Shown here piece after piece: positions 8,472 through 37,025 of a stretch of 64,000 nucleotides of DNA; position 1 is the first letter of the stretch, and every line of letters starts with the position of its first letter. Origin of the DNA: Rhodospirillum centenum SW (lineage in GTDB: Bacteria > Pseudomonadota > Alphaproteobacteria > Azospirillales > Azospirillaceae); NCBI RefSeq assembly GCF_000016185.1, contig NC_011420.2, positions 3,573,001-3,637,000 of the forward strand. The letters are read 5' to 3'. A program made the translations under genes and the position numbers. Under the pieces are notes generated by a model. It did no database searches, was not told the origin of the DNA, and saw nothing but the letters and a program-made list of their open reading frames with translations.

Positions 8472-8634
8472 CGGATCGGTTCTCTTCCTGGATCGCTCAG
8501 CGAAGGCTGGACGGGGGAACGCCCCCAGTCTACGTCCTGCGGCCAGATGCGCCAGGGGGCCGCGCGACGGCATGGTTGATTGCCGCGGCGCGTCGTCCCA
8601 CTTCTGGCCTGCGCAAGCGTGAAAGGGGGACTGA

Positions 8635-9468: not shown

Positions 9469-9515
9469 CCCCGCCCCGGCATCGCTCCGTCGCCCCGCCC
9501 TGGTCCCGAGAGCCG

Positions 9516-17670: not shown

Positions 17671-17689
17671 GTGCTGGAGGTCCATCACC

Positions 17690-18364
17690 ATGCTGAAGGA
17701 TTTGGTCGACATAGAAGTGCGTTTCGGCGACCGGGTCGTGGACGACGTCCGGCAGGTCGCCAACCAACTCCTCCAGCGTCAGTTCCTGTTCGCCGGCGAC
17801 CGCGGCACCACCCACGCCTATGAAATTGTGACAGGCCCGCGCTTCCGGAGCTATTTCACAGCGCTGTTCGATGCGTTGGGCTATCAGTTGCGGATCAGCG
17901 AAACTGAACAGTGGGTCGGCCTGCTACCCGATCCCGAGCTGGACCTTTTCCCGAAAATGCGGATGGACAAGACCATCGTGCTGCTGATCCTGGCGCTCGC
18001 TTGGCAGGATGCGGCAAACCGCGGCGCCGCGGAGGCCCGCGCGGTGGTGAAGACCACGCTCAATGAGGTGCTCGAACGCTACCGCGACATCGCAGGTCGT
18101 AACCGTAAGGAGGCCCTGATCTCGGCGCGCTTCGAGGATGCTCTACGCGAATTCCACCGGCGCGGCCTTGTCTGGCTCGGCGACTGGGATCCGGAAGCGG
18201 CCGACCGCGAAATCGAGATTCGCCCGATGCTGCATCTGCTGGTGGGCGGAAACGCGCTCGATCTCCTCGAACGCTTCGCCGCGGAAGCGGAGAGCGCGAT
18301 TACACGGGAGCGGAGGACCAGATCGCCGCAGGACGACGGTGAACAGGAAGGAACGGAAGAGTGA
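17690..18364 (+). CDS. jetB: Wadjet defence protein JetB (DUF4194-like)
   Basis: 224 residues from the ATG at 17690 with GGAGG ten bases upstream; an upstream ATG at 17663 overlaps jetA and has no ribosome site. JetB is the MukE-like subunit that binds the kleisin JetA. The pattern RQVANQLLQRQFLFAGDRG, YFTALFDALGYQLRI, then the long central helix MDKTIVLLILALAWQD and FHRRGLVWLGDWD match the DUF4194 family of tandem winged helices. The C-terminal 25 residues are charged and probably disordered. Its stop overlaps the GTG start of jetC. Confidence 0.83.
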   Translation: MLKDLVDIEVRFGDRVVDDVRQVANQLLQRQFLFAGDRGTTHAYEIVTGPRFRSYFTALFDALGYQLRISETEQWVGLLPDPELDLFPKMRMDKTIVLLILALAWQDAANRGAAEARAVVKTTLNEVLERYRDIAGRNRKEALISARFEDALREFHRRGLVWLGDWDPEAADREIEIRPMLHLLVGGNALDLLERFAAEAESAITRERRTRSPQDDGEQEGTEE

Positions 18365-21300: not shown

Positions 21301-21810
21301 GATGTGGCGGATTTCGAGGACTATCGCCACTATTACAGCTTCAATCTCATCATGAAGGACATCAAGACGAACCGCGAAGTGGATCTGGAAACCCGGCGGG
21401 GTACCGGATCCGGCGCCGAGCAGCAGGTGCCTTTCTATATCGCCATCGGCACCGCCCTTGCCGCTGCGTACCATGGTAAGGCGGCAGGTGACGTGGCAAA
21501 GGAGAAGGGGATCGGCCTTGCCGTGTTCGACGAAGCCTTCTCCAAACTCGATGGCAGGAACCAGAAAGCCTGCATGGATTATTACGAGAATCTGGGATTG
21601 CAGGTCATCGTGGCTGCGCCGTTCGAGAAGCGGGCAACGCTCTACGAGACCCTGGAGTATTTCGTCGAAACCTTCCGCAACGGGGACCTGATCCACGTGG
21701 ATTGGTATGGGGTGGGCGAACGCACCCGGCAGGATCTTGCCGAGGCGAACCCGGCTAACCTCGGCCTCGACGGGTTCCGGCGGATGATGGCCGCTCAGGC
21801 GGAGACGTGA
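18361..21810 (+). CDS. jetC: Wadjet SMC-like ATPase JetC (MukB-like)
   Basis: 1149 residues from a GTG overlapping the jetB stop (GTGA). The DNA-translocating motor of Wadjet. Walker A GENRSGKST lies at residues 30-38. Coiled coils run from about 235-400 and 600-880. A globular hinge is present at about 490-650 (PRIVCTLLRVMDDRWRDAVE, YKIGAGAGRIGLSA). The ABC signature region GTGSGAEQQVPFY (about 1013) and Walker B GLAVFDEAFSKLDG (about 1051-1064) are intact, so ATP hydrolysis is expected. This is the COG4913-type SbcC/MukB-like protein found in Wadjet systems. Full length for the family. Confidence 0.93.
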   Translation: MKHLIRIGMINWHLLPATDIDVSGDIGVIGENRSGKSTLLDLIQVVVTGNNGRYLRLNASATDGNRKRSLRSVQAYCLGRLSPDQVMRSQALTYIYLVFQDTGLPHHVTSIGLALEASQNEAAERPPVQFIADGISLSHTHFLELSADGAEQPRDWAVVRPHLERLCSEAGGTLLTYRNEPGKYVQDYMKILSTGGRFINTDQFLKAFVNAISFEQIPSATDFVRRYLLEDSPIRIGQLRESIATYHSFRKQVEEARTKLARLHALRSAISTFKDDLLAQDREQWIAARAQLDHAFVENRTLRRRRDQNLADQAEAKRARTQLEALREELGNELGTVRDAIAAQSGSAQRRQLESERALAETRLKETVGQLETIQKAVNQGAHALKFRMLLPTMPGEPFVVVERMRQAGGPARVPVWPNDPQALATALDDPRLRLPPLIDACERAANEETKAQGLKEQELREVVRQIKDIEATGIAIDSTVERLVAEMEGFGWRPRIVCTLLRVMDDRWRDAVEALLGRDREAVIVADAHVEDAIRYLQHNRVRLRGCRVVNSRKLSPAEGRPEPGTLAGVLASDDPLAMAFVVRRIGGVRLAYSVEDLHRPGRAVMQDGTYDDGLVVEMRAVAGGYKIGAGAGRIGLSALERRRNAIKEELEELEGRAKDLRTAAGCLTVLSAAVGRGTDLIAALDRYTWLKEKLDTLAEDIRALERNINPEFKARMVEIDQQIRLYTKGIEDAVRAEERATQSISTASMTLGGGENAVGSELSVQFARQKFQAVRHRIDRPASRAAYRAAVAAQKGNLTRTADLARRNAEAAAQRIQSVRIGIFDGYLAFNMEFGLKNEFTREQAQVLRDIAPWVEQGIARIEGIDLVRHQAEAEAAADRSRNFFQHSFAYELRRRFDALHSALEDMNRTLRAHDFHYEVYRFVAHPVEPYQAIIRLVEASRVDDSVFALLFDSQADDTHPHAIALKMVQELLLDEKRDVADFEDYRHYYSFNLIMKDIKTNREVDLETRRGTGSGAEQQVPFYIAIGTALAAAYHGKAAGDVAKEKGIGLAVFDEAFSKLDGRNQKACMDYYENLGLQVIVAAPFEKRATLYETLEYFVETFRNGDLIHVDWYGVGERTRQDLAEANPANLGLDGFRRMMAAQAET

Positions 21811-21813
21811 GCC

Positions 21814-22947
21814 GTGGCGAAGCGGTTCCGCGATGCGGTCGGCGCCCTGGAGCATATGCTGTCGACCATAGAGCGGGAGCCGGGGCGCACCGTCGTCCGT
21901 GTTTATCCAGATTATGAAGGCATGCGCACCGGCGAGGAACTGGAGCGCTTCGAACGCGTGATGACGGCGGCGGGGAAGGCCGGCGCCGTGCACATCGCCC
22001 TTGAACGACGGCCGAGCGGCCCCGCTTCGATCCGCTCTGTGGCACTTGCCGACGCAACGAAACTTGCGGCTCATCTCGGCCGCGTGCCTGCAACGGACGA
22101 AGCCGCTCGGGCGATCGACGTTCTCCGCCGCCTCACCGGCCCTCTGCCCGCCTGGGTCGGTGAGATCGTGGATGAAATCGCCGCCGCATGGGCCATTCGA
22201 CGCGAGGGGTATCCGGGATTGGAGCCCGGTGATGTGGCAACGGCGGCCGGTTTCATTCGGCTCCTGTGTGCGGTGGATCGCGGGGAGCATGTCGGAGTGG
22301 ACATGCGTACCTTCTCCCGACGCGCCTGCGGCGACAGCAAGGCGGCCGAGCTGGGCTTGCCACGTCTGGCACGCGCTCTGCGCAAGCGCTTTGATCTTCC
22401 CGACGCTCCTCCGCGCGAAGCTCTCGCAGCGTTCGGCATCGAGAAGTTCCCCCAGCCGGTCCTGCTGCGCGGGTCGCTGACGCTGTCCGGCGACACGCGG
22501 CTGGACGGACGGCCCTATGTCGGAGTGCCTCCGGAATGGCTGGACACTTTGGTGATTGTCGGCCGGCCAGGGTATTTCCTGGTTATCGAGAACCTCGCGT
22601 CCTTCAACCGTTACGTCCGGGAGGTGGATGATGGCGGCATCATCTTGTATTCCGGCGGCTTCCCTGCGCTTGCAACGCTGAAGGCCATCCGTCGTATGGA
22701 TGCGCTCCTGCCCGCCGATGTGCCGTTCTTCCATTGGGGAGATGTCGATGCGGACGGCGTGCGGATTCTTCAGTACATCGCACGGTCCATCAGTCGCCCG
22801 TTGCGCCCTCACCTGATGGGGGTCGATGCGTGGAGCGACACGGCCGTTTCCGAGCTTTGCTCGCAGCTTGGCGAGCCTGCCTTCCTGCCGATGGAGCAGG
22901 AGCAACTGGATCCGGAAAGTCCTTTGGCCATCACTTCCGCATCGTAG
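21814..22947 (+). CDS. jetD: Wadjet nuclease subunit JetD (Toprim)
   Basis: 377 residues from a GTG three bases after the jetC stop. JetD is the nuclease that cuts the DNA loop captured by JetABC. The N-terminal arm (about 1-190) is helical and winged-helix-like (DUF3322 type). The C-terminal half (about 225-377) is a Toprim domain of the DUF2220 type: catalytic Glu in FLVIENLASFNRYV, an IILYSGGFP strand, and the acidic metal site HWGDVDADG. The C-terminus FLPMEQEQLDPE is typical of the family. All catalytic acidic residues are present, so the system looks functional. Nothing recognisable follows for 620 bases. Confidence 0.9.
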   Translation: MAKRFRDAVGALEHMLSTIEREPGRTVVRVYPDYEGMRTGEELERFERVMTAAGKAGAVHIALERRPSGPASIRSVALADATKLAAHLGRVPATDEAARAIDVLRRLTGPLPAWVGEIVDEIAAAWAIRREGYPGLEPGDVATAAGFIRLLCAVDRGEHVGVDMRTFSRRACGDSKAAELGLPRLARALRKRFDLPDAPPREALAAFGIEKFPQPVLLRGSLTLSGDTRLDGRPYVGVPPEWLDTLVIVGRPGYFLVIENLASFNRYVREVDDGGIILYSGGFPALATLKAIRRMDALLPADVPFFHWGDVDADGVRILQYIARSISRPLRPHLMGVDAWSDTAVSELCSQLGEPAFLPMEQEQLDPESPLAITSAS

Positions 22948-23567: not shown

Positions 23568-25670
23568 ATGGACAATAAACTTATAAATAATCAACCTGGT
23601 ATTTCATCTCGGTCCGGCGTGCCCTGTCAGAAGGAAGTATCTTCTGCTGAATCGGATGTTGTTCGCCGGTTCTGCCATGAGGATGGTGATGCTTCCGATC
23701 CACAGCGCCACCCGTTTGGTGGTGCCGCACCTCCCGAACGGGCAGGGGGCAGGCCCGACCATCCCGGCCATTTCAGGATGGCGGTGGCGGCGGCACTTCA
23801 GAGCAGTGACCGGCTCGGGCTGCTCACCGTTGCCTTGGGGCCCGTACAGCCTTTCATCGCAGCCGCCCGATCGCTCCGCGATCTACGGACCGGCAGCGCA
23901 CTTCTGTCCTACCTGTCGTTCTGCGCGATGCGGCCGGTGATCGACAGACTGGGCAAGCACAACCTGATATCGCCCAGCCTGTACGGAAACCCGTGGCAGA
24001 GATCTGGGCAGGGCGAAGAAACCATCCCCACGTCCGGCCTACCGCATCGGTTCCTGGCACTCGTCCCCTGGGGAGAGGAGGGGGCAGAGGCTGCGACCCT
24101 GGCGCGTGCCTGCGAGGCAGCTGCGAAGGACGCGCTGGTTGAGATTGCTGCTGCGGTGCGGGGAAAGATCGCTGAGCGGATGGACGATTTCCGCGGCTGG
24201 GATGCACTGTGGGATGCGCAGATCGACGCCATGCTGCATGTCCGTGCCGTGGCGGTCCCGTTGGATGTCGACGCATCAACGCTTTCCCGCCTTGGGATTC
24301 CGACGGATGCGGATGAAGGTGGAGGGGTGGGCTGGATCGGGCTGGTGGACCTCGCCGGCCGGGTGCTGGCAGCCCGACGATCAGTCCTGCCGGTGCCGGT
24401 GAACCCTGCGGCCGAGGCTACGGGAACTGTAGCGAAATGCACCCTTCTGGGCAGCTGGGAGCAGATGGGAGATGGGGTCTTCTGGAAGGTCGCCCCCGAT
24501 CGGTTGAGAATGGGCGGCGTGCGGATGCGCCCGAGCGAACGGTTCTGCGCCCAGTCCCTGGTCAAGCGGTTCGCCTTTCCAGCTTTTCCTCAGATCACGT
24601 TCGGGTTTGAACCGAAGGATGTCCGCTTCCCTGATACCGCTACCGTGGCAGCCGCGGAGTGGCTGGAGGGTGCCGGACCGGATTTGCAGCGGTATGCTGA
24701 TCGGGGTGAGTGGTCCGGGCAGTGGCTGCACTGGGTGCGGCAAGATCAGGATAAAGACGAAGCCCGCTGCCCGGACGAGGTCTGGGCGCAGATCTTGGAG
24801 GCTAAAAGAAATAGCAAAAACAATCCGCCGTCTTATTATGCAATTCTCGTCGCCGATGGCGACAATATGGGGCAGTGGTTGCGGGGGGATAAGCTTGACC
24901 AAGGCCGGCGCATGTCGCCCCTGCATCATATGGCGATTTCCGAAGCCTTGGCGAATTTTTCCGTCCATGCAGCTCCTGCCATCGTCACAAATCATAAGGG
25001 CTGGCTGATCTATTCCGGGGGAGATGACGTATTGGCCGTACTGCCGGCCGCGCGTGCCCTGTCCTGCGCCCTCGCCTTGCGCAATGCGTTCCGCGGCACC
25101 GGGGGGTGGTATGAGGGACGGCTCGCATTGGGTGACAAGGCCGGCCTGTCGGTCGGCGTGGCCGTGGTCCATCACAAGGAGGATCTGCGGGAGGCGCTGG
25201 ACGCTGCCCGCACGGCGGAGAAGAAGGCAAAGGGTGATGGCCGAGACCGTCTGGCGCTGACGGTGCGCCGCCGGTCGGGGGAACATGCGACCAGCTTTCT
25301 GCGCTGGGAGAATGTGCCCTGGATGACCGCGCTGGTGGAGGCGTTCCGCGATGGTGCCTCCGACCGCTGGGCCTATCGACTGCGGGGCATGGCCGGCACC
25401 CTGGACGGGTTGCCGGTGGACGCGGGCACGGCAGAGCTGAAACGCCAGGTCGGCCGGTCGGAAGGAGAGACGCTGGAGAGACTGGCCCGGCTCGGGCCGA
25501 TCCTGGACCTCGCGCCGGCAGCCACGGATGACGACACCAAGGCCATGGCCCTGGCGGCGCTGGCGGCTGCCTATGAGCGGTTCCGCCATGGCCATGATGG
25601 CCCGCGGATCGCTGACTTCGCCCTGGCCTGTCAGGATGCCAGTTTCCTCGCCCGTGGCCGCGACCGCTGA
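23568..25670 (+). CDS. cas10: Cas10/Cmr2, type III-B CRISPR large subunit with active cyclase motif
   Basis: 700 residues from the ATG at 23568 (AAAGGA 11 bases upstream); the first 70 residues are poorly gene-like and the ATG at 23778 is an alternative. The Cmr2 segment GPVQPFIAAARSLRDLRTGS begins near residue 91 and marks type III-B. The second palm domain carries YSGGDDVLAVLP with the GGDD at 484-487, so cyclic oligoadenylate synthesis is expected on target RNA binding. No N-terminal HD nuclease domain is seen, since the palm-associated region starts almost at once. A zinc-finger-like element was not identified. First gene of a tightly packed cas operon; cmr3 follows after 15 bases. Confidence 0.93.
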   Translation: MDNKLINNQPGISSRSGVPCQKEVSSAESDVVRRFCHEDGDASDPQRHPFGGAAPPERAGGRPDHPGHFRMAVAAALQSSDRLGLLTVALGPVQPFIAAARSLRDLRTGSALLSYLSFCAMRPVIDRLGKHNLISPSLYGNPWQRSGQGEETIPTSGLPHRFLALVPWGEEGAEAATLARACEAAAKDALVEIAAAVRGKIAERMDDFRGWDALWDAQIDAMLHVRAVAVPLDVDASTLSRLGIPTDADEGGGVGWIGLVDLAGRVLAARRSVLPVPVNPAAEATGTVAKCTLLGSWEQMGDGVFWKVAPDRLRMGGVRMRPSERFCAQSLVKRFAFPAFPQITFGFEPKDVRFPDTATVAAAEWLEGAGPDLQRYADRGEWSGQWLHWVRQDQDKDEARCPDEVWAQILEAKRNSKNNPPSYYAILVADGDNMGQWLRGDKLDQGRRMSPLHHMAISEALANFSVHAAPAIVTNHKGWLIYSGGDDVLAVLPAARALSCALALRNAFRGTGGWYEGRLALGDKAGLSVGVAVVHHKEDLREALDAARTAEKKAKGDGRDRLALTVRRRSGEHATSFLRWENVPWMTALVEAFRDGASDRWAYRLRGMAGTLDGLPVDAGTAELKRQVGRSEGETLERLARLGPILDLAPAATDDDTKAMALAALAAAYERFRHGHDGPRIADFALACQDASFLARGRDR

Positions 25671-25685
25671 GAGGGGCAACGCGCG

Positions 25686-26777
25686 ATGACCGGAAGAACT
25701 GTCACTTTGATCCTTGAGCCGCTGGACGGCCTCTTCTTCCGCGGCGGCAAGCCGTTCGGCGCCGGTACCGGCGCCACCAGCGGCCTGCCCCAGCCGCAGA
25801 CCCTGGCTGGTGCGCTGCGGACTGCGCTGATGCAGCGTCTGAACTGTAATTTCGGGACGCTGAAGTCAGACCTGGAGCGCGGTGTACCGCTGGATGCCGC
25901 GCTGGCCGGTCAGGGCGCCGATCTGGGCGCCATCGCCGACCTGTCCGTCCGCGGGCCCTGGCTGGCGAAGGACGGTGCCCCGCTGCTTCCCGCGCCGCTG
26001 CATCTGCATCGGGAAAAGCATGGACAGGCGCTGCACCTCCTGACCCCGTTGCGCGATGACCTGCCCGGTTGGCGCGAAACCGCAGCGCCGGAGTGGGAGC
26101 GGCCGTTATGGGCGGCGACAGAGGCTGTCACCGAACCGGCGGGTGGCTTCATCACCCTGAAGGGCATGGCCGAAGTTCTGGAGGGCCGCCCGCCGGCCGC
26201 CGATACCCTCTGGCCCGGGGACTGCCTGTATGACATCGACCGTCGCGTCGGGCTGGCGATCAAGGGGGACACGCTGACCGGCGAGGACGGGATGCTCTAT
26301 GGGGTGGGCTTTCTGTGCCTGCGAAAGGGTGTGTCCTTCGTCGCCCAGATCGACGGGCTGACCGACGCCCTCAAGGACGTCCTCAGCACCTCTGAGGTCA
26401 TTGCCTGGGGGGGAGAGGGCCGGCGGGTCAGGGTCGGGATCAAGGACGGCGCTCTGCCTTGGCCCGAACCGCCCGACACGCCGGCGTCCGATCAGGGCGG
26501 AACGGTGCTGGTGCTGACCACGCCCGCCTTCCTGGACGGCGGTTGGCGGGGCGCGGACTGGCGACCGCTGGCGGCCGCCGTGCGCGACCCGGTCCCGGTC
26601 TCCGGCTGGGATCTGGCGCGCCGTCAGCCGAAGCCCACCCGCTTCGCCGTGCCGGCTGGAAGTGTCTTCTTCTTCGCGGGTGATCCGCCGGAGGATCTGG
26701 CCCTTGGGCCGGGCACGGCGGAGGACCGGCATCTTGGTTATGGATGTGTCCTGAAGGGAGTGTGGCGTCATGCCTGA
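25686..26777 (+). CDS. cmr3: Cmr3, type III-B Cas5-family subunit
   Basis: 363 residues. Cmr3 binds the 5' handle of the crRNA and docks on Cas10. The diagnostic N-terminus LILEPLDGLFFRGGKPFGAG, then SGLPQPQTLAGALRTAL, is clear (residues 8-48), as is the C-terminal glycine-rich segment LGYGCVLKGVWRHA typical of RAMP proteins. RBS GAGGGGCAAC lies before the ATG at 25686. The 3' end overlaps the start of cmr4 by eight bases, supporting translational coupling. Confidence 0.92.
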   Translation: MTGRTVTLILEPLDGLFFRGGKPFGAGTGATSGLPQPQTLAGALRTALMQRLNCNFGTLKSDLERGVPLDAALAGQGADLGAIADLSVRGPWLAKDGAPLLPAPLHLHREKHGQALHLLTPLRDDLPGWRETAAPEWERPLWAATEAVTEPAGGFITLKGMAEVLEGRPPAADTLWPGDCLYDIDRRVGLAIKGDTLTGEDGMLYGVGFLCLRKGVSFVAQIDGLTDALKDVLSTSEVIAWGGEGRRVRVGIKDGALPWPEPPDTPASDQGGTVLVLTTPAFLDGGWRGADWRPLAAAVRDPVPVSGWDLARRQPKPTRFAVPAGSVFFFAGDPPEDLALGPGTAEDRHLGYGCVLKGVWRHA

Positions 26778-27666
26778 TGGGGCGAGAGCAAGCCTGTTCA
26801 TTCATGCCTTGACCGGCCTGCACCCGGGTTCGGGCACCGCTCTGGGGGTGGTCGATCTGCCGGTCCAGCGCGAGCGGCACACCAATTGGCCGTTGATCCC
26901 CGCCTCTTCAATCAAGGGCGTGCTGCGGGCCGCGATGAAGCGCAAGCACAATGACGATGGACAGCTCTGGGCCGTGTTCGGCCCCGATACGGACAACGCG
27001 GCCGAGCATGCCGGTGCGCTGGCGCTGACCGATGCCCGGATCCTGGCCTTTCCGGTGCGGTCGCTGAAAGGCGTGTTCGCCTGGATCACCTGCCCGACGG
27101 TGTTGGCCCGGTTCTGCCGCGACCGGGCCCTTGTGGGCGAGCAGCCGCTGCCGGCCGTACCGACCGTAACGACCGGCAAGGTCCGCTGTCCGAAGGTAGG
27201 CCCGGAGCAAGAAAGCCCGCTGCTGATCGACAACACCGCGCTGATCCTGGAGGAGTTCGACTTCGACTACGAGGGCGATCCCGGACTATGGCCGGAGGTG
27301 CTGGCCCAGACGGTGGATGCGGCGACCGGGGATCGGATGCGCACCCATCTGGCGATCCTGTCGGATGATGATTTCGGTCATTTCGTACAGCATGCGACCG
27401 AGGTGGTCGCCCGCATCGGACTGGACGCGAAGACCAAGACGGTCAAGAACGGCGCTCTTTTCTATGAGGAGGTGCTTCCGGCCGAGACCCTGTTCCATGC
27501 CTTGGTCATGGCGGAATCCAGCCGCAGGGCAGAGGTGCCGATGCCGGCCGCCGAGGTGCTGGCGTGGGTGCGCCAATCTGAGCTGGACGTGGTTCAGATC
27601 GGCGCCGATGAGACCATCGGCCGTGGCATCTGCCGCCTGACATGGGCGGACGGAGGTGCGCGATGA
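26770..27666 (+). CDS. cmr4: Cmr4, type III-B Cas7-family backbone and target-RNA nuclease
   Basis: 298 residues. Repeating backbone subunit that wraps the crRNA and cuts target RNA at six-nucleotide intervals. The conserved loop LHPGSGTALGVVDLPVQRER contains D29, the position of the catalytic aspartate known from archaeal Cmr4, so target slicing is expected. ASSIKGVLRAAMKRK is the RAMP alpha1 segment, and the C-terminal G-rich loop ADETIGRGICRLTW is intact. The stop codon overlaps the ATG of cmr5 (ATGA). Length is normal for Cmr4. Confidence 0.93.
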   Translation: MPDGARASLFIHALTGLHPGSGTALGVVDLPVQRERHTNWPLIPASSIKGVLRAAMKRKHNDDGQLWAVFGPDTDNAAEHAGALALTDARILAFPVRSLKGVFAWITCPTVLARFCRDRALVGEQPLPAVPTVTTGKVRCPKVGPEQESPLLIDNTALILEEFDFDYEGDPGLWPEVLAQTVDAATGDRMRTHLAILSDDDFGHFVQHATEVVARIGLDAKTKTVKNGALFYEEVLPAETLFHALVMAESSRRAEVPMPAAEVLAWVRQSELDVVQIGADETIGRGICRLTWADGGAR

Positions 27667-28331
27667 GCAGGAAATCGAAGGGGCGCGGTGACCATCATCA
27701 CCCCCGACAGGCGGTGCCGGCCGGACCGCCCCAGGCGGTCGCCGTGAGTCCCCCCCCGTATCACCCCACGATGGCTGCGCAGGCGTCGACGCCTGCGGGG
27801 GGCCCAGCGTCAGGGGGCCAGGGTTTTACAGGCGGATCGGCCGCGGCGGGCTCATCGCCCGCATCGCCGAAGTCCGTTACCGCCCGTGCCCAGGACGTGG
27901 CCCAGCAACGTGCCGCCCACGCCTGGGCTGTCATCAAGAAGATCGAGACATGCCCGGCAGAGGCGAAAAAAGACTTCGGCGGTCACGCCAAGAAACTGCC
28001 GATGCGCATCCGGGCCGCCGGGCTGGGCCAGGCCTTGGCCTTCGTGCGGGCCAAGGCCAAGGCCAAGGAGAAGGAGGGAAAACGAAAGGAGGGCCTTGTC
28101 CTGCTGCTGCAAACCGTCGGCGGGTGGGTCCTGCCCCGTCTCAAGTCTGATGCGGACATTACCGGCACTCCGGCCCTCGCATCCGACGACGCGCTGATCC
28201 GCGACATCCTGGGCGGCGACAGAATCTTTCTGCGCCGGGCCACGCTGGAGACGCTGGCCTATCTGGAATGGCTGAACCGTTTTGCCGAGGCGGAGGGGCT
28301 GGGCGATGGCGACGACACAGAATGGGATTGA
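27663..28331 (+). CDS. cmr5: Cmr5, type III-B small subunit with long N-terminal extension
   Basis: 222 residues from the ATG overlapping the cmr4 stop, with GGAGG upstream. The helical Cmr5 core occupies about 70-222: VTARAQDVAQQRAAHAWAVI, KKLPMRIRAAGLGQALAF and ATLETLAYLEWLNRFAEAE. It stabilises the Cmr4 filament along the target RNA. Normal Cmr5 is about 120-160 residues; the extra N-terminal 65-70 residues are a Lys/Arg/His start followed by a Pro/Ala/Gly-rich low-complexity stretch. This tail is probably disordered. The 3' end overlaps the next gene by 26 bases. Confidence 0.9.
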   Translation: MSRKSKGRGDHHHPRQAVPAGPPQAVAVSPPPYHPTMAAQASTPAGGPASGGQGFTGGSAAAGSSPASPKSVTARAQDVAQQRAAHAWAVIKKIETCPAEAKKDFGGHAKKLPMRIRAAGLGQALAFVRAKAKAKEKEGKRKEGLVLLLQTVGGWVLPRLKSDADITGTPALASDDALIRDILGGDRIFLRRATLETLAYLEWLNRFAEAEGLGDGDDTEWD

Positions 28332-30588
28332 CGCCGGGCCGTTCGTGCCGGCTGGAACGCGGGCACGTTTCGACCGCATACAGCCACCGGAGCGCCATCC
28401 CGGCCTGCAACTGGACAAGTTCAGCGTCGGCGGAGCGCAGAAGGATCTACAGGCCGAGGCTCTGAAAGAGGTCTGTGCGACGAAGGGCGACAAGGCGGCG
28501 CTGGACTGGGCGCTGAAGCGCCGCAACGCGATGCTCGACGCGCTGGGCGCCACCCGGTTCGAGGCGACGACCGAGGGACCGCTCACCCTGCATCTGTCAC
28601 GCGCCTCGGCGCTGGAGAATGCCGGCATCTGCCTGCACCCGCTTCATGGTTTCTGCTATCTGCCGGGCAGCGGCCTCAAGGGCATGGCGCGCGCCTGGGC
28701 GCTGACCGAAGCCGGCCTCACGGAGGATGATCCGACCTTCACGGCGATCTTCGGTCGTTCCCCTGACCCGAAGAAGAACGTTGCGGGCACTGCGGGCGCA
28801 GTCGTGTTCCATGACGCCTGGCCGCTGACCTGGCCCAGGCTGGTCCGCGATATCGTCACCAACCACCATAAGAAGTACTATCAGGACAGCGAGCCTCCCG
28901 GGGACTGGATGGAGCCGGTGCCGGTCCAGTTCCTGGCCGTGGAGCAGGGCTGGCGGTTCAGCTTCGCCCTGTCCGTCCGCTCCGGTGCCGATGCGGCCTT
29001 GGCTTCGGCCCTGGTCGCCACGGCGGCGGACTGGTTGCGCGCCGCGCTTACCGTGAAGGGGGCCGGGGCCAAGACCAACGCCGGCTATGGCACCTTCGTG
29101 CCGGTGGAGGGGCCACGCCCGGCGCCACCGGCGGAACGCTCGCTGACCGTCACGCTGGATCTCGTCAGCCCCGCCTTCTTCGCGGGTGCCACGCAGGACG
29201 GAAATGACTGCGATCTGCGCCCCGCCACCCTGCGCGGCCTGCTTCGCTGGTGGTGGCGCACCCTGCACGTGGCCCACGTCTCTCTTAAGGACCTGAAAAA
29301 CCTTGAAACTCTGGTCTGGGGCGATGTCAAGACCGGAGGCTCCGTCAGAGTAGCCTTGACACCGATTGAGAAGAAGGGGTGCTTTAAGTTCGATAAAGAT
29401 GACGCTGGATTCTACAATAAAAATAATCTCCAGAAGCCTTCTGGCAAAAAAACAACCCAAGGATTGTTCTATTCGTCCTATGGTATGGACGAAAAATCCA
29501 AAAATATACGCCGGCAGAGATGGTGCATGGAGGCAGGATCAAGATGGCAGCTTACCTTGACGGCTCGCTCCCCTCTGGTTCTTCGTCAGGCAGCCTCCGC
29601 ATTGTGGTTGCTTTGTAATTTTGGGGGCGCTGGCTCTAAAAGCAGAAAGGGCTTCGGATCATTTGCAGATGTACAGATTCGGGTCGGATCAGAATCTCTT
29701 ATAGATTCTTTGAACGACTGTAAATCTGCAGCGGCAGAGTTTCGTTCGATCTATCGCATTGTTTCAATGCCCTCGAAAGCCGAGACTGCTTCCATCGACG
29801 ATCTGATGGGACCATTGGAGATAGACCTGCCATGGCGGAATCCCTGGTTCGCATTGGACCAGGTCGGTTATGCGACCCAAGCCTTTGCTCAGAAATATAA
29901 ACACAACCCGGCAAAACAGGTGCTGGGTTTGCCTCGCAAAATTCATGGCCCTAAAGACGATGGCCCGATCACCAACAGAGATGGAATTCGACAGCAAGCG
30001 AACTGGGAACCGCCTGTCTGGCTTGGCCACGATCACCCGAGGCGGCCAAGGGAGGTGCTGCCAGAGCGGTTCCGCGATGCATCGCCTGTCCACTATCATC
30101 TTACTCGTAGCGCGAATGGCACGCTGGCACTGCGGGTCGTCGCGTTCCCGTCACGCAATCTAGGGGGCAAGGATGGCGGGCGCGCCCTGTTCGCCGACTT
30201 GTTCGAGCGCCTTCGGGAGGAGCTTGGCCGCAGGTGCTCTGATCCTGCCCTGTCCAGACTTGGTCAGTCAGCGCTCCGTTCGTCGAATCCTGCCCCTTTC
30301 CAGCAGAACAGCTTGCCCGCCCCAGGCACACGGGTCAGGGCAGTCCTGCTTGAGGAGAAGACGAAAAAGGGCGGGTGGAAAGCGCGCTACCCGCAAAACG
30401 GGACTGTTGGGCCGATTCAGAACACCCAGGATGTCCCGTCGAACTGTAAGGCAGGGGATGAGGTAGAACTTGTCATCCGCAGCAGGACCGATTTCGGATG
30501 GCCAACGCTGAGGGATGACGCACCGCCTAAATCGCCGATAACTTCACAGAATAGTGGGCCGAGCGGTGGAGCCGGTCGGCGACGATGA
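28306..30588 (+). CDS. Cmr6-Cmr1 fusion protein, type III-B
   Basis: 760 residues from the ATG at 28306 (GGAGGGG upstream). Residues about 1-265 are Cmr6: the glycine loop CYLPGSGLKGMARAWAL (118-134) and GAGAKTNAGYGTFVPVEG (252-269). After a short Pro-rich linker, about 279-650 are Cmr1: LDLVSPAFFAGA, the signature DLRPATLRGLLRWWWRTLH (303-321) and a glycine loop GAGSKSRKGFGSF (441-453). A third small domain at about 671-735 (TRVRAVLLEEKTKKGGWKAR ... GDEVELVIRSR) looks beta-rich and OB-like. Cmr6 and Cmr1 sit next to each other at the 3' end of the crRNA in known Cmr complexes, so the fusion order fits the structure. Bases 29290-30000 are notably AT-richer than the rest of the gene. Confidence 0.9.
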   Translation: MATTQNGIDAGPFVPAGTRARFDRIQPPERHPGLQLDKFSVGGAQKDLQAEALKEVCATKGDKAALDWALKRRNAMLDALGATRFEATTEGPLTLHLSRASALENAGICLHPLHGFCYLPGSGLKGMARAWALTEAGLTEDDPTFTAIFGRSPDPKKNVAGTAGAVVFHDAWPLTWPRLVRDIVTNHHKKYYQDSEPPGDWMEPVPVQFLAVEQGWRFSFALSVRSGADAALASALVATAADWLRAALTVKGAGAKTNAGYGTFVPVEGPRPAPPAERSLTVTLDLVSPAFFAGATQDGNDCDLRPATLRGLLRWWWRTLHVAHVSLKDLKNLETLVWGDVKTGGSVRVALTPIEKKGCFKFDKDDAGFYNKNNLQKPSGKKTTQGLFYSSYGMDEKSKNIRRQRWCMEAGSRWQLTLTARSPLVLRQAASALWLLCNFGGAGSKSRKGFGSFADVQIRVGSESLIDSLNDCKSAAAEFRSIYRIVSMPSKAETASIDDLMGPLEIDLPWRNPWFALDQVGYATQAFAQKYKHNPAKQVLGLPRKIHGPKDDGPITNRDGIRQQANWEPPVWLGHDHPRRPREVLPERFRDASPVHYHLTRSANGTLALRVVAFPSRNLGGKDGGRALFADLFERLREELGRRCSDPALSRLGQSALRSSNPAPFQQNSLPAPGTRVRAVLLEEKTKKGGWKARYPQNGTVGPIQNTQDVPSNCKAGDEVELVIRSRTDFGWPTLRDDAPPKSPITSQNSGPSGGAGRRR

Positions 30589-30695: not shown

Positions 30696-32300
30696 ATGGC
30701 TAAAAATATTGATCGTCTTATCAGCTTTGTTGGACTTGGTTCGAAAAACGAATCGGGGCAGAATGATTACAAACCTACTCGCTATTTTTGGGAGGGACGG
30801 GGCGAGGGGCCGATTCAAACAAAGCATGTCTCCCTGGCGTTGACGCGTATTTTGCAGCCGGCTGAAACCGTACTGCTGACCACGGCAAAGGCCAGGGAGA
30901 CGTGGCAGGAACGACTGCCCGCAGCCTTTCAAGAGGTCGGGCTGCCTGCGCCGAAGTTCGTGGACATCCCCGATGGCAAGGATCAGTCGGAACTGTGGCG
31001 GATCTTCGAGATCTGCCGCACGCACCTGGACCCGCCAGAGGCCATGTCGGGCGGAACGGTCATGGACATCACCCATGGCTTCCGATCCCAGCCCTTTCTG
31101 GCCGGTGCTGCGGCGGCCTTTACCCGCTTGACGCGAAACCTGGACGACAGCCGCTCGGTCACGCTGGTCTATGGCGCTTTCGAAGCCAGGGATGCAGAGG
31201 ATCGAACCCCCATCATTGATCTCACTTCCTTCCTCGACATCGTCGATTGGGCTCAGGCGATCATGCTGTTCCTGCGCACCGGCCGCGGCAAAGATCTGGT
31301 TGCGCTGACGAGTCGAGACGCTGGGGCGCTGTTCCGCCGTTGGGATGAAGGGGGGCGTCCAGGGACGAAGCCCGGGCTCACCGGTTTGAAGAGGCCGCTT
31401 GAGGATTTCGCCGCTGATCTTGCCACGCTGCGTACCGGAAGCCTTCTGTTGCCGACCGGGACGGCGCAGAAGCTGAAAGCCAAGATCGACGAACTCGATA
31501 CAGAGCTTAAGGGGCATCCCGCTCTGACAACCATCATCGATCGGCTGCGGACCATGGCGGCCGATCTGGTCCTGCCCGACGGTGTGGACACCCTGTCCGG
31601 TCCCGACGCCCAGAAGACCATGGCCGCCCTGGCCCGTCGCTATCTGGAGATGGACCGCTACATGGAGGCGGCGGCGATTGTCCGCGAGGGGATGGTGAGT
31701 CTCTATGCGCAACCTGAAGCCGGTCGGCCAGGGCAGAGCTTCTCCAAAAAAGCTCGAGACGAGGCGGAATGTCGTTGGCGCCGACTGGATTCAAACGCCA
31801 GGGGAGATGGACAGCTACGCAATGACCTGCTGCATGCCGGTTTCAATAGAGGTCCGGCTGGAGCGCCGCAGATTGCGAACGGTGTCAGGAAACTTGTGGA
31901 GAACCTTGCCACCGCTCAGATCCCTGAGGAAACTCAGTCGTCCCCTCTCTTCCTCAACCTTTCCAACCACCCCAGTGCCGAGTGGGAGGCCACCCAGCGG
32001 GAGGCCGCACGGAAGCTCGCGCCGGAAATCCGTGATCTGCCCTTCCCCGCAGTGCCGCCCGAAGCAGATGACGCTGCCATCAGTCAGATTGCCCGGGACC
32101 TTGCCAAGCAGGTGCCCCCCGGCACCACCCATGCGATGATCCAAGGCGAATTCACACTGGCCTTCGCGCTGGTGCGCGAGCTTTACAGAGATGGCGTTGT
32201 CTGTCTGGCGGCCACCACCGACCGGGAAATGGAGACGGAGCCGGACGGCAGCCGGCGCTATCGCTTCCGCTTCGTGCGCTTCCGCGCCTACCCCGTCTGA
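30696..32300 (+). CDS. CARF-HEPN effector (Csx1/TM1812-like, DxTHG) with fused C-terminal domain
   Basis: 534 residues. Residues about 1-190 form a CARF domain with the DxTHG motif DITHGFR at 124-130, the cyclic oligoadenylate pocket of the TM1812/Csx1 family. A HEPN domain follows at about 290-410 with its RNase motif RNDLLH (R375, H380; Rx4H). It should be a cOA-activated ribonuclease that acts after Cas10 detects target RNA. Residues 417-534 form an extra Rossmann-like unit: [58 protein letters not shown]. This is not part of ordinary Csx1. It recalls small standalone CRISPR ancillary proteins that bind or break cOA (Csx15/16/20 group), but that link is inference. cas1 follows after 10 bases. 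Confidence 0.85.
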
Positions 32301-32310
32301 ATCCCCGCCC

Positions 32311-33363
32311 GTGACCACCCTCTATGTCACCGTCCCCGGCGCCATCGTGCGCACCGAGTCCGGCTCCCTGTCCGTCTGGATCGAGGTGCAGGCCGACGAC
32401 GGCGGGCCGGATGACGGGCCGATCCGCCGCAAGCGCCTGACCAGCATCGAACCACACCGGCTGGAGACGCTGGTGCTGCTGGGCCAGACGGCGCTGACGC
32501 CGAACGCCATGCGGCTGTGCATGGCCCACCGGATCACCGTGGCTCTGCTGGACGGCGGCGGCAATCTGGCCGCCCGGGTGGTCCCGCCCGAGGCGCGCAC
32601 GGCCGATCTCCGCCTGCATCAGTACACGCTGCATCATACCCCGGAGGAGCGGCTGATCCGGGCGCGCGGCGTGGTGGCGGCCAAGCTGCACAACGCTGCC
32701 GAGGTGCTGCGCGCCGTCCGCAGCAACCAGTCCAACCCGGACATCGCACGGGCCATCGCGGAGGTGGAGCGGACCGCCGCCACGGTCGCCGATGCCGTCA
32801 CGCCGGAAACCCTTCTCGGCATCGAGGGCAACGGGGCGCGCCAGTACTTCGCCGGCCTGCGCGCCGCCTTCGTGGGGGACATCCGGTTCACCGGCCGGGC
32901 CCAGCGGCCCCCGCCCGACCCCGCCAATTCCATGCTGTCCTTCGGCTATGTGCTGCTGGGCAACCGCATCGCCGGGCTGCTGGAGGCACGCGGGATCGAT
33001 CCCTGTCTGGGGTTCTTTCATGCGTTGCGTCCCGGCCGGCCGTCGCTGGCTCTGGACCTGCTGGAGGAGCTGCGCCAGCCGGTCGTCGACCGGCTGGTGC
33101 TGCGCCTGTGCAATCTGCGCATGCTGAAGCCCGACATGTTCGAAGCCGATGCCGAACGGCCCGGGGGCGTGCGCCTGACGGTGGAAGGGCGCCGCACCTT
33201 TCTGGAGGAGTGGGAGGCCCAGCTCGCCCGGCCGCTGCGTGAACAGGGAACGCCGTCCGGGCAGCGGCTGGACGTGCATCGGCTGATCCAGCGCCAGGTT
33301 GACCGTCTGGTCGCCGATCTGCGCGGGGGCGAGCCGTACCGCCCCTTCCGCTTCGGCGGCTGA
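32311..33363 (+). CDS. cas1: Cas1 integrase
   Basis: 350 residues from the GTG at 32311; the open frame upstream lies inside the previous gene in another frame. Spacer-integration nuclease acting with Cas2. Catalytic residues are present: Glu in [16 protein letters not shown], His in [16 protein letters not shown] and the acidic residues of [16 protein letters not shown]. The N-terminal beta domain begins [12 protein letters not shown]. No reverse transcriptase fusion is present. Ribosome site is weak. Full length. Confidence 0.93.
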
Positions 33364-33393: not shown

Positions 33394-33774
33394 ATGGCGC
33401 TGTGGACCGACCCCGACGATGACGAGTTCTTCGAGGACCCGTTCGATGCCGATGTCGATACCCTTGCCACCCTGCTGACCGGGAAGCCGCCGATGAACCG
33501 CTACGTCGTCTCCTATGACATCATCGACAACAGGCGCCGCGTGAAGGTGTCCAACTGCCTGGACAGCTATGGCCAGCGGGTCCAGAAGAGCGTGTTCGAG
33601 GTGCTGATCTCCAAACAGCTCCATGCCCGCATGATCCGCGAACTGACCGCTCTGATCGACGCCGGACAGGATCGGATCAGCATCTATCCCCAGTGCGGCA
33701 GTTGTGATGCCCGCCGCGTCGATCTGGGGGTTGCGCCGGACAAGCCCGTACACCAGAATTGGATCATCGTCTGA
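33394..33774 (+). CDS. cas2: Cas2 with possible acidic N-terminal extension
   Basis: 126 residues if translated from 33394 (GGAG upstream); the Cas2 core starts at the ATG at 33493, MNRYVVSYDIIDNRRRVKVSN, with the ferredoxin-fold metal aspartate in SYDIID, followed by GQRVQKSVFEVLIS and RISIYPQCGSCDARRV. The extra 33 residues are strongly acidic (DPDDDEFFEDPFDADVD). Either start is possible. Cas2 forms the bridge between Cas1 dimers during spacer capture. The CRISPR leader and array follow 226 bases downstream. Confidence 0.9.
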   Translation: MALWTDPDDDEFFEDPFDADVDTLATLLTGKPPMNRYVVSYDIIDNRRRVKVSNCLDSYGQRVQKSVFEVLISKQLHARMIRELTALIDAGQDRISIYPQCGSCDARRVDLGVAPDKPVHQNWIIV

Positions 33775-34000: not shown

Positions 34001-36077
34001 CCGCAGCCCTCTCCCCGCTACCGAGGGGACTGAAACGAGCACCTCCTCCATCTCGTCACGTCGCCAACGGTCGATCCGCAGCCCTCTCCCCGCTACCGAG
34101 GGGACTGAAACGCCACCTCGGCAAGCGCCACCAGCGTTTCCGCATCCAGTCCGCAGCCCTCTCCCCGCTACCGAGGGGACTGAAACGCGGTTGGTCCAAC
34201 GTGCGTTACACCCATCGTTACGCCACTCCGCAGCCCTCTCCCCGCTACCGAGGGGACTGAAACATGCTGGACGATTTCGCGCTCTTCCTCGTCGGTATCA
34301 TAAAAGTCCGCAGCCCTCTCCCCGCTACCGAGGGGACTGAAACGTCGTCGAGGTCGATGTCGTCCTCGGGATGGAGCCACCAGTCCGCAGCCCTCTCCCC
34401 GCTACCGAGGGGACTGAAACAGGAGCGCCGCGCCGAGCTACGATGATTGACGCTCGCTCCGCAGCCCTCTCCCCGCTACCGAGGGGACTGAAACGAGGTT
34501 GGCCTCCACGGTCAACGTGTCGAAGGTGAGCTTTCCGCAGCCCTCTCCCCGCTACCGAGGGGACTGAAACCATCGCGGCTTGCGTCGGAACGTCCGGTCT
34601 GCTAAGAAAACTCCGCAGCCCTCTCCCCGCTACCGAGGGGACTGAAACCCGGTCGGGTTCCTCTTCCATCAACTCAAGCAGAGCCGCTCCGCAGCCCTCT
34701 CCCCGCTACCGAGGGGACTGAAACTCCCCAGCCGTCACGACGGTGCCGCCGTCCGCGGGTGTTTCCGCAGCCCTCTCCCCGCTACCGAGGGGACTGAAAC
34801 GCGGGCGAGCCCCCGCCGAAGAAACCGACGGTGATATCCCGCAGCCCTCTCCCCGCTACCGAGGGGACTGAAACCCAAGGGACGCGAGAGCAATAACGGA
34901 GTGGTGCGGGGACCCGCAGCCCTCTCCCCGCTACCGAGGGGACTGAAACAATATTCATGCTCGCTGACACATAAGAATTGCCGTCAACCGCAGCCCTCTC
35001 CCCGCTACCGAGGGGACTGAAACCACGTGCGGCGGACGCCATTACCCGAATGGCGGGCGACCCGCAGCCCTCTCCCCGCTACCGAGGGGACTGAAACGCG
35101 GGCGCAGGGTGTGAGCGTCAGTCCGCGGTCCGCAGCCGCAGCCCTCTCCCCGCTACCGAGGGGACTGAAACTCCTCTCGGAGATGCGCTCCAAGGGGCTG
35201 GACTTCGCCGCCGCAGCCCTCTCCCCGCTACCGAGGGGACTGAAACCCGTACTCCAGTACGGCATCCTGATTGAAACGGATGCTGTCCGCAGCCCTCTCC
35301 CCGCTACCGAGGGGACTGAAACGGTGCGGACGACGACCATCCTGCCGATCATGTCCAGACCGAGTCCGCAGCCCTCTCCCCGCTACCGAGGGGACTGAAA
35401 CTCGCGCCGCTCGCCACCATCGTGATGTCACGACCAAATCCGCAGCCCTCTCCCCGCTACCGAGGGGACTGAAACCCGCGGCGATGCGCGTGCCGTCGGC
35501 TTTGGCGGCGTCCAGCGTCCGCAGCCCTCTCCCCGCTACCGAGGGGACTGAAACAGGTGCTGCCCCGTCGTGAGGCACGCGACGGCAATCGCTCCGCAGC
35601 CCTCTCCCCGCTACCGAGGGGACTGAAACAGGGCGTCCCCGACGCCCAGAGCCGCAACCGGGACGCTCCGCAGCCCTCTCCCCGCTACCGAGGGGACTGA
35701 AACACCCCGCTTCCTTTAGCCGCTGAAACAGTCCAGCCGGTCCGCAGCCCTCTCCCCGCTACCGAGGGGACTGAAACTTGAGCATGTCGGAGACGCATCC
35801 GTTTTCGAGCATGCAGTCCGCAGCCCTCTCCCCGCTACCGAGGGGACTGAAACAGGACGCGGGCCGAGGCGAAGGGGTCGGCCGTACAGAACCCGCAGCC
35901 CTCTCCCCGCTACCGAGGGGACTGAAACGACGAACGACGCGTACCGCCCGCACGGGGAAATGGTGTCCGCAGCCCTCTCCCCGCTACCGAGGGGACTGAA
36001 ACACAGCGGGGCCATCCTCTCTATGTAGCTTGCCATTCAACCCGCAGCCCTCTCCCCGCTATCGAGGGGGGAGAGGC
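34001..36077 (+). CRISPR. Type III-B CRISPR array, 28 repeats and 27 spacers
   Basis: The 36-base repeat begins CCGCAGCCCTCTCCC and ends GAGGGGACTGAAAC. 27 copies look identical; the last one (36042-36077) matches for its first 20 bases and then diverges (TATCGAGGGGGG), the normal sign of the distal end. Repeats start at 34001, 34076, 34151, 34228, 34308, 34385, 34459, 34535, 34613, 34689, 34765, 34839, 34914, 34988, 35062, 35136, 35211, 35287, 35366, 35440, 35519, 35594, 35668, 35742, 35818, 35893, 35967 and 36042. Spacers are 38-44 bases, mostly 38-40, and none appears duplicated. The 8-base 5' handle of a mature crRNA would be ACTGAAAC. The stem CCCTC...GAGGGG would be the Cas6 substrate. 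Confidence 0.98.
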
Positions 36078-36116: not shown

Positions 36117-37025
36117 TCACTCCAGGGGCTGGATGAGCACCTGCCCCAGCCCGAACACCGTGGCCTTGCCCAGATGCACCCAGCCGAGCGCGGCCAGCAG
36201 GGGCCAGAGCGGCCCCGGTCCCTCCGGCAGGTCGAGCGAGCCTGTCACCCCGTGCAGGTCCAGTTCGCCCTGGTTCGCGGAATACCGGTGCAGGTGGGCC
36301 GGGCTGCCCCGCCATCGGCCGGCCGGCAGCGCCCGCGCCCAGGCGAGCGCCGGCCCGTTCAGGGCGGACAGTGCCGCGCCTCCGTTCCCGGCCGTGGCCC
36401 CGGCCAGCCGGGACAGCCGCCGCAGACCGACCGCCACGATGTCCGGCAGGGTGGGCTGGTCGATCAGCCGCCCCCGGCGCAGCATCCGCACCGGCACATC
36501 GAAGACCAGACGGCAGGGCAGCCCGGCCGTGGCCTCCCCTGCCGTGCCCAGGGGCCAGACCACCTGATCCAGGCCGAACGGGTCGGCCGTGCCTGCCCGT
36601 ACCTGTCCGTCCGGCCCCAGTGACCGGATCGCCCGGACGGCGAAGGGTCGGCGCTCCGGCCCCAGCCCGCGCGCCGAGGCCAGCAGCCAGCCCTCCAGAA
36701 GGGCAGGGTCTTGGTGCAGGGCCTCTGCCATGCTGATCCACTCCACCGCCGGCCAGTCCACCGCATCCGGGGGCGCGGGGCGCAGCAGATACCGCGGATG
36801 CGCCTCTGCCCCCGATTCGGCACGCCCCTCGAAAACGGCGGCGTAGCAGCCCGGGTCATGGTCGTGCAGAGCCGCGCCCCAGACCCCGCGCAGCATCGGC
36901 ACCGTGGTCATCACGCCCGGCGTATCCAGCACCAGTCTCCGGGCCTTGACATGCACCGAGGCGAGGGCGACGCGCAGCTCATCGGCCAGGGCGGAGGCCG
37001 GGGGAAGGTCGGCTGTCGGGAGCAT
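36117..37025 (-). CDS. cas6: Cas6 pre-crRNA endoribonuclease
   Basis: 302 residues, on the opposite strand 40 bases beyond the array, facing it. Cas6 cuts within each repeat to free crRNAs that load on the Cmr complex. The RAMP C-terminal glycine loop HLGKATVFGLGQVLI (about 283-297) is characteristic of the PF10040-type Cas6, and the N-terminal half (DELRVALASVHVKARRLVLD, then TTVPMLRGVWGAALHD) matches that family's start. Catalytic histidine not assigned. GC content is chromosome-like, higher than in the cmr genes. Confidence 0.82.
   Translation of the reverse strand: MLPTADLPPASALADELRVALASVHVKARRLVLDTPGVMTTVPMLRGVWGAALHDHDPGCYAAVFEGRAESGAEAHPRYLLRPAPPDAVDWPAVEWISMAEALHQDPALLEGWLLASARGLGPERRPFAVRAIRSLGPDGQVRAGTADPFGLDQVVWPLGTAGEATAGLPCRLVFDVPVRMLRRGRLIDQPTLPDIVAVGLRRLSRLAGATAGNGGAALSALNGPALAWARALPAGRWRGSPAHLHRYSANQGELDLHGVTGSLDLPEGPGPLWPLLAALGWVHLGKATVFGLGQVLIQPLE

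What the first reader, a model, noticed from the sequence alone, without database searches (positions are those of the whole stretch)
28306..30588. Cmr6 and Cmr1 fused into a single 760-residue protein
Two complete RAMP modules lie in one open frame with no stop: Cmr6 (LPGSGLKGMARAW, NAGYGTFVP) then Cmr1 (DLRPATLRGLLRWWW, KSRKGFGSF). In known type III-B complexes these two subunits are neighbours at the crRNA 3' end, so a covalent link would fix their ratio and position and could change how the complex caps the filament. The fusion may exist in other genomes; I cannot tell how common it is.
Basis: partly seen in the sequence, partly recalled or inferred. Interest (0 to 1): 0.78.

Follow-up and report, generated by a model that had tools for sequence, protein, structure and literature searches.

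The report
Cmr6–Cmr1 fusion with shared tail domain
A bacterial RNA-guided immune complex has two of its neighbouring subunits (Cmr6 and Cmr1) joined in one protein; this join recurs across many bacterial phyla, was already known in one cyanobacterium, and here ends in a small, extremely conserved domain that also appears on other RNA-targeting CRISPR proteins, including a Cas13a.

Summary
In detail: 28306-30588 is one uninterrupted frame with Cmr6 followed by Cmr1, each above NCBI's curated cut-off, in a complete type III-B locus (cas10-cmr3-cmr4-cmr5-cmr6/1, CARF-HEPN-Csx20, cas1, cas2, 27-repeat array, cas6). It is not an error: 14 full-length homologues (37-46% identity) with the same domain order occur in about ten bacterial groups, including finished genomes. 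A Cmr1-6 fusion is, however, already published: Microcystis aeruginosa (PMC11855584), with the complex purified. The lineage here appears to be a different, broader one. Every full-length fusion of this lineage has it. The CTD is also found on some unfused Cmr6, on type III-D Cas7 (TIGR03986), and on a Cas13a beside its own CRISPR array. Predicted folds point weakly to an OB/S1-like nucleic-acid-binding fold. Most likely the fused chain is the crRNA-3'-end cap, with the CTD a flexible arm that helps capture target RNA; the arm's role is inferred. New variant of a known kind.

The parts
28306..30588 (+). cmr6-cmr1-CTD fusion gene, 760 aa
28483..29097 (+). Cmr6 RAMP module (aa 60-264)
   Evidence: TIGR01898 104.4 bits; fused-family alignment A1
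29098..29136 (+). Cmr6-Cmr1 linker, 13 aa (6-33 aa in homologues)
29137..29715 (+). Cmr1 N-terminal RAMP module (aa 278-470), with invariant R314-W315-W316-W317
   Evidence: TIGR01894 42.2 bits; alignment to Pyrococcus Cmr1 4w8x
29797..30228 (+). Cmr1 C-terminal half (aa 498-641)
   Evidence: conserved in A1; Foldseek match of the model to Cmr1 structures
30229..30312 (+). Low-complexity linker to the CTD (aa 642-669)
   Evidence: pLDDT below 50 over aa 658-668; 25-51 aa in homologues
30313..30510 (+). C-terminal domain (CTD, aa 670-735), OB/S1-like by prediction
30355..30378 (+). run EKTKKGGW (aa 684-691), identical in the 27 aligned CTDs of III-B and III-D proteins
23568..25670 (+). cas10/cmr2 (GGDD motif present, no HD-domain match)
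25686..26777 (+). cmr3
26770..27666 (+). cmr4
27642..28331 (+). cmr5 (domain aa 86-218; true start may lie downstream); overlaps the fusion gene by 26 bases
30696..32300 (+). CARF-HEPN-Csx20 protein (RNDLLH HEPN motif)
   Evidence: PADLOC CARF_HEPN_CSX20, 388 bits over the full length
32191..33363 (+). cas1
33394..33774 (+). cas2
34001..36004 (+). CRISPR array, 27 perfect copies of the 30-nt repeat core
36117..37025 (-). cas6

Best explanation
The gene encodes the whole crRNA-3'-end cap of a type III-B (Cmr) complex as one chain. Its Cmr6 module caps the Cmr4 backbone, a short linker leads to a Cmr1 module that holds the crRNA 3' end, and a longer flexible linker carries a small OB/S1-like domain. 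Because target pairing in III-B begins at this end (the seed), the tethered domain most likely binds single-stranded RNA and helps capture the target or hold the crRNA tail. The fusion guarantees one Cmr1 per complex. Shown here: domain content and order, conservation, operon context, distribution. Shown by published work in other systems: Cmr1/Cmr6 position and seed. Inferred: placement of the fused chain in the complex, the OB fold and the RNA binding of the CTD. Evolution (inferred): cmr1, which stands first in the operon of the unfused loci L015, L018 and L019, moved between cmr6 and a CTD that was already the tail of Cmr6.
For: Both modules score above curated cut-offs, and the AF2 model matches solved Cmr1 and Cmr6 chains. 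The same order occurs in 14 further full-length proteins, mostly with cmr5 directly upstream. The tryptophan pair by which Cmr1 binds the crRNA 3' region is invariant. Cmr1/Cmr6 sit at the crRNA 3' end and are needed for target binding, and the seed lies there (PMC8376896). A natural Cmr1-6 chain co-purifies with Cas10/Cmr3/Cmr4/Cmr5 (PMC11855584). The Cmr6-to-Cmr1 linker is only 6-33 aa in all homologues, as expected for adjacent domains. CTD: 13 of 66 columns invariant, the highest density in the protein; about half of the 50 best Foldseek matches are S1/OB RNA-binding domains; in III-D it sits on the TIGR03986 Cas7, whose C-terminal part resembles the last Cas7 domain of gRAMP; Cmr6 proteins elsewhere carry a cold-shock (OB) domain at the other end (L054, PF00313; PDB 9arw by name). 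The CTD is on some standalone Cmr6 but on no standalone Cmr1 seen.
Against: No CTD structure match reaches E 0.001, and the CTD construct modelled alone lacked the last strand; no significant Pfam match; no solved homologue by sequence. RNA binding is untested. The CTD tree is unresolved, so the direction Cmr6-CTD to Cmr6-Cmr1-CTD is not established. A Cas13a also carries the CTD, so its role cannot depend on a III-B-specific surface.
Confidence: 0.6

Rival explanations
1. The fusion is as described, but the CTD is a protein-docking module: it brings type III and type VI effectors to a common cellular partner (for example ribosome, RNA polymerase or an ancillary nuclease) rather than binding target RNA.
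For: A run of eight residues conserved across III-B and III-D, and nearly so in VI-A (EKTKRGGW), suggests one specific ligand; crRNA handles differ between these types, so a shared ligand may well be a host component. Many S1-domain matches in the fold search are proteins that act on ribosomes or RNA polymerase.
Against: The run is basic and aromatic, as in RNA-binding S1/OB loops (inference). No accessory gene common to all CTD loci was seen, but this was not searched systematically.
Confidence: 0.27
2. The chain is made as one polypeptide but is cut after translation, so that the working complex contains ordinary separate Cmr6 and Cmr1.
For: The linkers vary in length and composition and could be protease-sensitive.
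Against: No shared motif in the Cmr6-Cmr1 linker, which is only 6 aa in L012/L014. In Microcystis, His-tagged Cmr1-6 co-purified with the other subunits as distinct bands.
Confidence: 0.05
3. It is the same lineage as the published Microcystis Cmr1-6, so nothing is new beyond another host.
For: Same two modules in one protein; cyanobacteria hold ~650-aa Cmr6-Cmr1-like proteins.
Against: The window protein scores 16.7 bits against PADLOC PDLC01212, which the ~650-aa cyanobacterial proteins match at 122-129 bits. A tree of the Cmr6 module puts those apart, and one clade of all fusions is rejected (AU p 0.029). They lack the CTD. Whether the Microcystis protein itself belongs to that ~650-aa group was not tested.
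Confidence: 0.15
4. The fusion is a frameshift or assembly artefact joining two genes.
For: None found.
Against: Single finished contig; 14 full-length homologues with the same architecture, including finished chromosomes L003 and L020.
Confidence: 0.01

Closest known systems
Cmr1-6 fusion of Microcystis aeruginosa FACHB-524 cluster 4 (PMC11855584)
   Same: Cmr6 and Cmr1 modules in one protein of a III-B operon (cas10, cmr3, cmr4, cmr5, fusion, CARF gene); purified as part of a complex and active against T4 in E. coli
   Different: No CTD was seen in the passages read; the ~650-aa cyanobacterial fusions that resemble it form a separate branch. Its own sequence was not compared.
Separate Cmr6 and Cmr1 of canonical III-B complexes (PDB 3x1l, 9l7c, 6s6b, 4w8x, 4w8v)
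   Same: Each half matches in sequence and predicted fold
   Different: Two chains there, one chain plus CTD here
Type III-Dv fused Cas7 subunits and III-E Cas7-11 (PMC11026444)
   Same: Adjacent Cas7-like subunits joined by short linkers along the crRNA
   Different: Other subunits are fused; Cmr6 and Cmr1 do not take part; no CTD seen in the passages read
Cmr6 proteins with an N-terminal cold-shock (OB) domain (PDB 9arw; L054)
   Same: A small OB-fold domain added to the crRNA-3'-end subunit; L054 is sister to the main fusion clade
   Different: Other end of the protein, different domain family, no Cmr1 fused
S1/OB domain noted in III-B variants with Csx10 (now III-D) by Makarova 2011 (PMC3150331)
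   Same: An OB-fold domain fused to type III proteins of a related group
   Different: Whether it is the same domain as this CTD could not be checked; Cmr6-Cmr1 fusions and Cas13a are not mentioned in that section

Membership tests
Type III-B (Cmr) system | cas10/cmr2, cmr3, cmr4, cmr5, cmr6 and cmr1 present together | tested here: met
   All six detected above NCBIfam cut-offs, cmr6 and cmr1 in one gene
Cmr6 (TIGR01898) | Score above the curated cut-off | tested here: met
   104.4 against 51.1 bits
Cmr1 (TIGR01894) | Score above the curated cut-off | tested here: met
   42.2 against 28.65 bits
Cmr1 | Conserved tryptophan pair that binds the crRNA 3' region (Pyrococcus W38/W39) | tested here: met
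   RWWWR aligned to the WW of 4w8x, invariant in 15 fused proteins; role from PMC5965380
Cyanobacterial ~650-aa Cmr6 variant (PADLOC PDLC01212) | Full-length match to the 499-position model | tested here: not met
   16.7 bits, part of the model only; separate in the tree, AU p 0.029
S1/OB-fold domain (for the CTD) | Significant sequence or fold match to S1/CSD/OB domains | tested here: inconclusive
   Pfam S1 best E 0.011 in one of 27 members; Foldseek best E 0.04, about half of the top 50 S1/OB
Type III-D Cas7 TIGR03986 (other host of the CTD) | Score above the curated cut-off in a CTD-bearing protein | tested here: met
   L021 335.8 against 161.35 bits; L022-L024, L026 and L065 by PADLOC Cas7_IIId; L025 not scanned
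Cas13a (type VI-A; other host of the CTD) | NF038188 above cut-off, two HEPN RxxxxH motifs, adjacent CRISPR array | tested here: met
   361.5 against 150 bits on the C-terminal half; RNGSFH and RNRLAH in the sequence; 66-nt-spaced array 8592-9500 of L085
Functional III-B complex with a fused cap | The chain assembles once per complex at the crRNA 3' end | not testable with these tools
   Needs purification and structure; purification has been done for the Microcystis fusion only

The most novel reading that the evidence does not exclude
The CTD is a portable module of RNA-targeting CRISPR immunity. The same ~70-residue domain has been attached to the crRNA-3'-end subunit of types III-B and III-D and to the single effector Cas13a of type VI-A, crossing from class 1 to class 2, because it gives all of them one shared property, such as capture of single-stranded target RNA or docking to transcribing or translating machinery.
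Probability: 0.55. Interest if true: 0.75.

Novelty: new variant of a known kind. Interest (0 to 1): 0.55.

Why it matters
The fusion itself is a useful natural design: it fixes the cap of a III-B complex at one copy and removes a separate subunit, a step like those that elsewhere led to single-chain III-E effectors. The CTD matters more. A domain shared by III-B, III-D and VI-A effectors, the last of which is otherwise unrelated in architecture, points to a need common to RNA-targeting immunity that the core effectors do not meet alone. It is small and testable, and describing it would improve annotation, since no Pfam model covers it.

Tried and rejected
Searches of the open-access library for a Cmr6-Cmr1 fusion found one report, Microcystis; most subscription papers are not covered. 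The motif (KTKKGGW, EKTKKGG) is in no held paper. CTD against plasmids and phages (tblastn): no match; viral contigs: 47 pattern matches, none a relative; PDB by sequence: none meaningful. A single origin of all CTD-bearing fusions: the Lentisphaerae pair L012/L014 falls apart from the rest in the Cmr6-module tree, but holding them together is not rejected (AU p 0.134). A CTD tree to find the direction of transfer: too few columns; the Cas13a CTD pairs with the alphaproteobacterial fusion L007 at 90/55 only. Relatives of the CTD-bearing Cas13a: none in the other 15 genomes of its family; two viral-contig homologues (43%) end without the CTD. Frameshift or assembly error: rejected by the homologues.

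Full report
Observation. The frame 28306-30588 (+) is open throughout, 760 aa from ATG (an in-frame TTG lies at 28282). NCBIfam finds Cmr6 (TIGR01898, 104.4 bits, cut-off 51.1) and Cmr1 (TIGR01894, 42.2 bits, cut-off 28.65) on consecutive stretches; PADLOC agrees. The gene is the fifth of cas10-cmr3-cmr4-cmr5-cmr6/1 and is followed by a CARF-HEPN-Csx20 gene, cas1, cas2, an array of 27 perfect repeat cores and, on the other strand, cas6. Cas10 has the GGDD motif and no HD-domain match, so the system probably acts through cyclic oligoadenylate and the CARF-HEPN nuclease (inference).

Not an artefact. A scan of 84,980 species genomes returned 14 full-length proteins of the same architecture, plus L013, in which the Cmr6 part is split between two frames. 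Record titles name Acidobacteria, Deltaproteobacteria, Binatia, Planctomycetes, Sericytochromatia, Hyphomonadaceae, Thermoanaerobaculia, Rhodothermales, Hydrogenedentes, Lentisphaerae and a Fermentithermobacillus. Aligned identity to the window protein is 37-46%. The gene order is the same where flanks are long enough, with cmr5 not detected in L012 and L014. Most are metagenome-assembled, but the window, L003 and L020 are whole chromosomes. Of 12 fusion genomes searched whole, most have no separate Cmr6 or Cmr1; G399 has a separate pair too, G403 has two fusions, and G407 and G412 have one weak extra match each.

How common. In 399 genomes of the own phylum, 18 have Cmr6 above cut-off and only the window's lies in a fusion-length frame. 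In 247 genomes of the phylum of L001 (Acidobacteria) three have full-length fusions and one a C-terminal fragment, against about 20 with separate Cmr6; in 246 of the phylum of L004 (Planctomycetes) three against about a dozen; in 194 of the phylum of L006 (Sericytochromatia, cyanobacteria) five genomes, one of them cut off by a contig end. The centre genome of each of the last three samples is itself a fusion carrier, so these rates are slightly high. In the own order (82 genomes) only the window genome has the CTD, and G+C falls from about 0.70-0.74 to 0.58-0.68 over 16-36 kb, so the locus was probably acquired.

Known before. A natural Cmr1-6 fusion is published: Microcystis aeruginosa FACHB-524 cluster 4, in which tagged Cmr1-6 co-purified with Cas10, Cmr3, Cmr4 and Cmr5 and the complex protected E. 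coli from T4 (PMC11855584). The fusion as such is therefore not new. Cyanobacteria hold a ~650-aa Cmr6-Cmr1-like family (PADLOC PDLC01212) to which the Microcystis protein probably belongs (not tested). The window protein is not of that family: 16.7 bits, a separate place in the Cmr6-module tree, and a single clade of all fusions rejected (AU p 0.029). So Cmr6 and Cmr1 have probably been joined at least twice. Within the CTD-lineage fusions 21 rows form one supported clade; the Lentisphaerae pair falls apart from it, but one clade is not rejected (p 0.134).

The third domain. Residues 670-735 are conserved in all fused proteins, with 13 of 66 columns invariant, a higher density than in Cmr6 (27/205), Cmr1N (24/193) or Cmr1C (7/144). 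The run EKTKKGGW is identical in all 27 CTDs of alignment A2. One caution: these loci were gathered partly with the pattern EKTKKGGW, so complete identity is partly by selection; later profile searches, free of that pattern, found variants (EERTKKGGW in L074, EERTNKGGW in L091, DKTKKGAW in L088, EKTKRGGW in the Cas13a L069, and a degenerate form in L068). Pfam has no match above threshold. AlphaFold2 gives strands and a short helix of OB type in the full model (E676-683, E691-694, E701-704, a short helix, E719-724; pLDDT mostly 80-91). The CTD modelled alone is of moderate confidence and lacks the last strand. Foldseek finds no significant match, but about half of its 50 best are S1/OB RNA-binding domains (exosome Rrp4/Rrp44, eIF2alpha, NusA, eIF1A and others). 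I call it OB/S1-like with moderate confidence.

Where else the CTD occurs. (a) C-terminal on standalone Cmr6: L015, L016, L018, L019, L047, L055, L063, L068, L088, L091 and a fragment, L092. (b) C-terminal on type III-D Cas7 of the TIGR03986 kind: L021-L026, L065 (L025 not scanned). Their RAMP fold is spread over ~470 residues, as in insertion-bearing Cas7, and the C-terminal part resembles the last Cas7 domain of gRAMP, which fits the crRNA-3'-end Cas7 (inference; compare PMC11026444). (c) C-terminal on a Cas13a of a genome of the window's own class (G1138; E 3e-23, 5.5e-24): 1311-aa frame, NF038188 361.5 bits on the C-terminal half, two HEPN motifs, array with 66-nt spacing directly downstream. 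Two viral-contig relatives end without the CTD, and no solved Cas13a matched it. Apart from L017, cut at a contig end, every CTD found sits on an RNA-targeting CRISPR effector, including all hits of the CTD-profile searches of 198, 200 and 82 genomes.

Mechanism. Published work places Cmr1 and Cmr6 as the heterodimer at the crRNA 3' end, finds both needed for target binding, and locates the seed there (PMC8376896). The fused chain keeps the WW pair of Cmr1 and joins the modules through 6-33 residues, as expected if they lie side by side. The CTD hangs on a further 25-51 residues that look disordered. An RNA-binding arm at the seed end would help target capture or hold the crRNA tail; this is inference. 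L054, sister to the main fusion clade, carries a cold-shock domain at the N-terminus of Cmr6 (PF00313), as does PDB 9arw by its name: OB-type domains seem to have been added to this subunit more than once. The chief rival is docking to a shared host partner.

Evolution. Cmr1 stands first in the operon of the unfused loci L015, L018 and L019, whose Cmr6 ends in the CTD. CTDs were seen on Cmr6 and on no standalone Cmr1. The simplest route to Cmr6-Cmr1-CTD is insertion of cmr1 between cmr6 and its tail. The CTD tree cannot confirm this, and later addition of a CTD to an already fused chain is not excluded.

Verdict. A real fusion, a new and widespread lineage of a published kind of fusion, carrying a conserved domain whose presence on III-B, III-D and VI-A effectors is the more interesting result.

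Noticed in passing
16159-22947: Complete Wadjet type I defence operon (jetA, jetB, jetC, jetD; PADLOC 651, 276, 1426 and 440 bits) directly upstream of the CRISPR locus, in the same stretch of lowered G+C: a defence island.
   Followed up: partly
L085:4545-8477 (L069), array 8592-9500: Cas13a with the same C-terminal domain as the Cmr6-Cmr1 fusion; homologues L094/L095 lack it.
   Followed up: partly
L062:697-2508 (-): Cmr6 in one frame with a C-terminal SAVED-like part (PDLC02018, 73 bits): a possible cap subunit fused to a cyclic-nucleotide sensor.
   Followed up: no
L054:140-1561: Cmr6 with an N-terminal cold-shock domain (PF00313), sister to the main fusion clade.
   Followed up: partly
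L074, L075, L076: Fusions of 938-981 aa in the phylum of L006 with a long N-terminal extension and, in L074, a long Arg-rich linker before the CTD.
   Followed up: no
27642-27900: The cmr5 frame has an ~85-residue Pro/Ala/Gly-rich N-terminal extension before the Cmr5 domain; the true start may be downstream.
   Followed up: no
PDB 9z7q chain I: A solved chain named Cmr1-MntA matches the Cmr1 module, which hints at another kind of Cmr1 fusion elsewhere.
   Followed up: no
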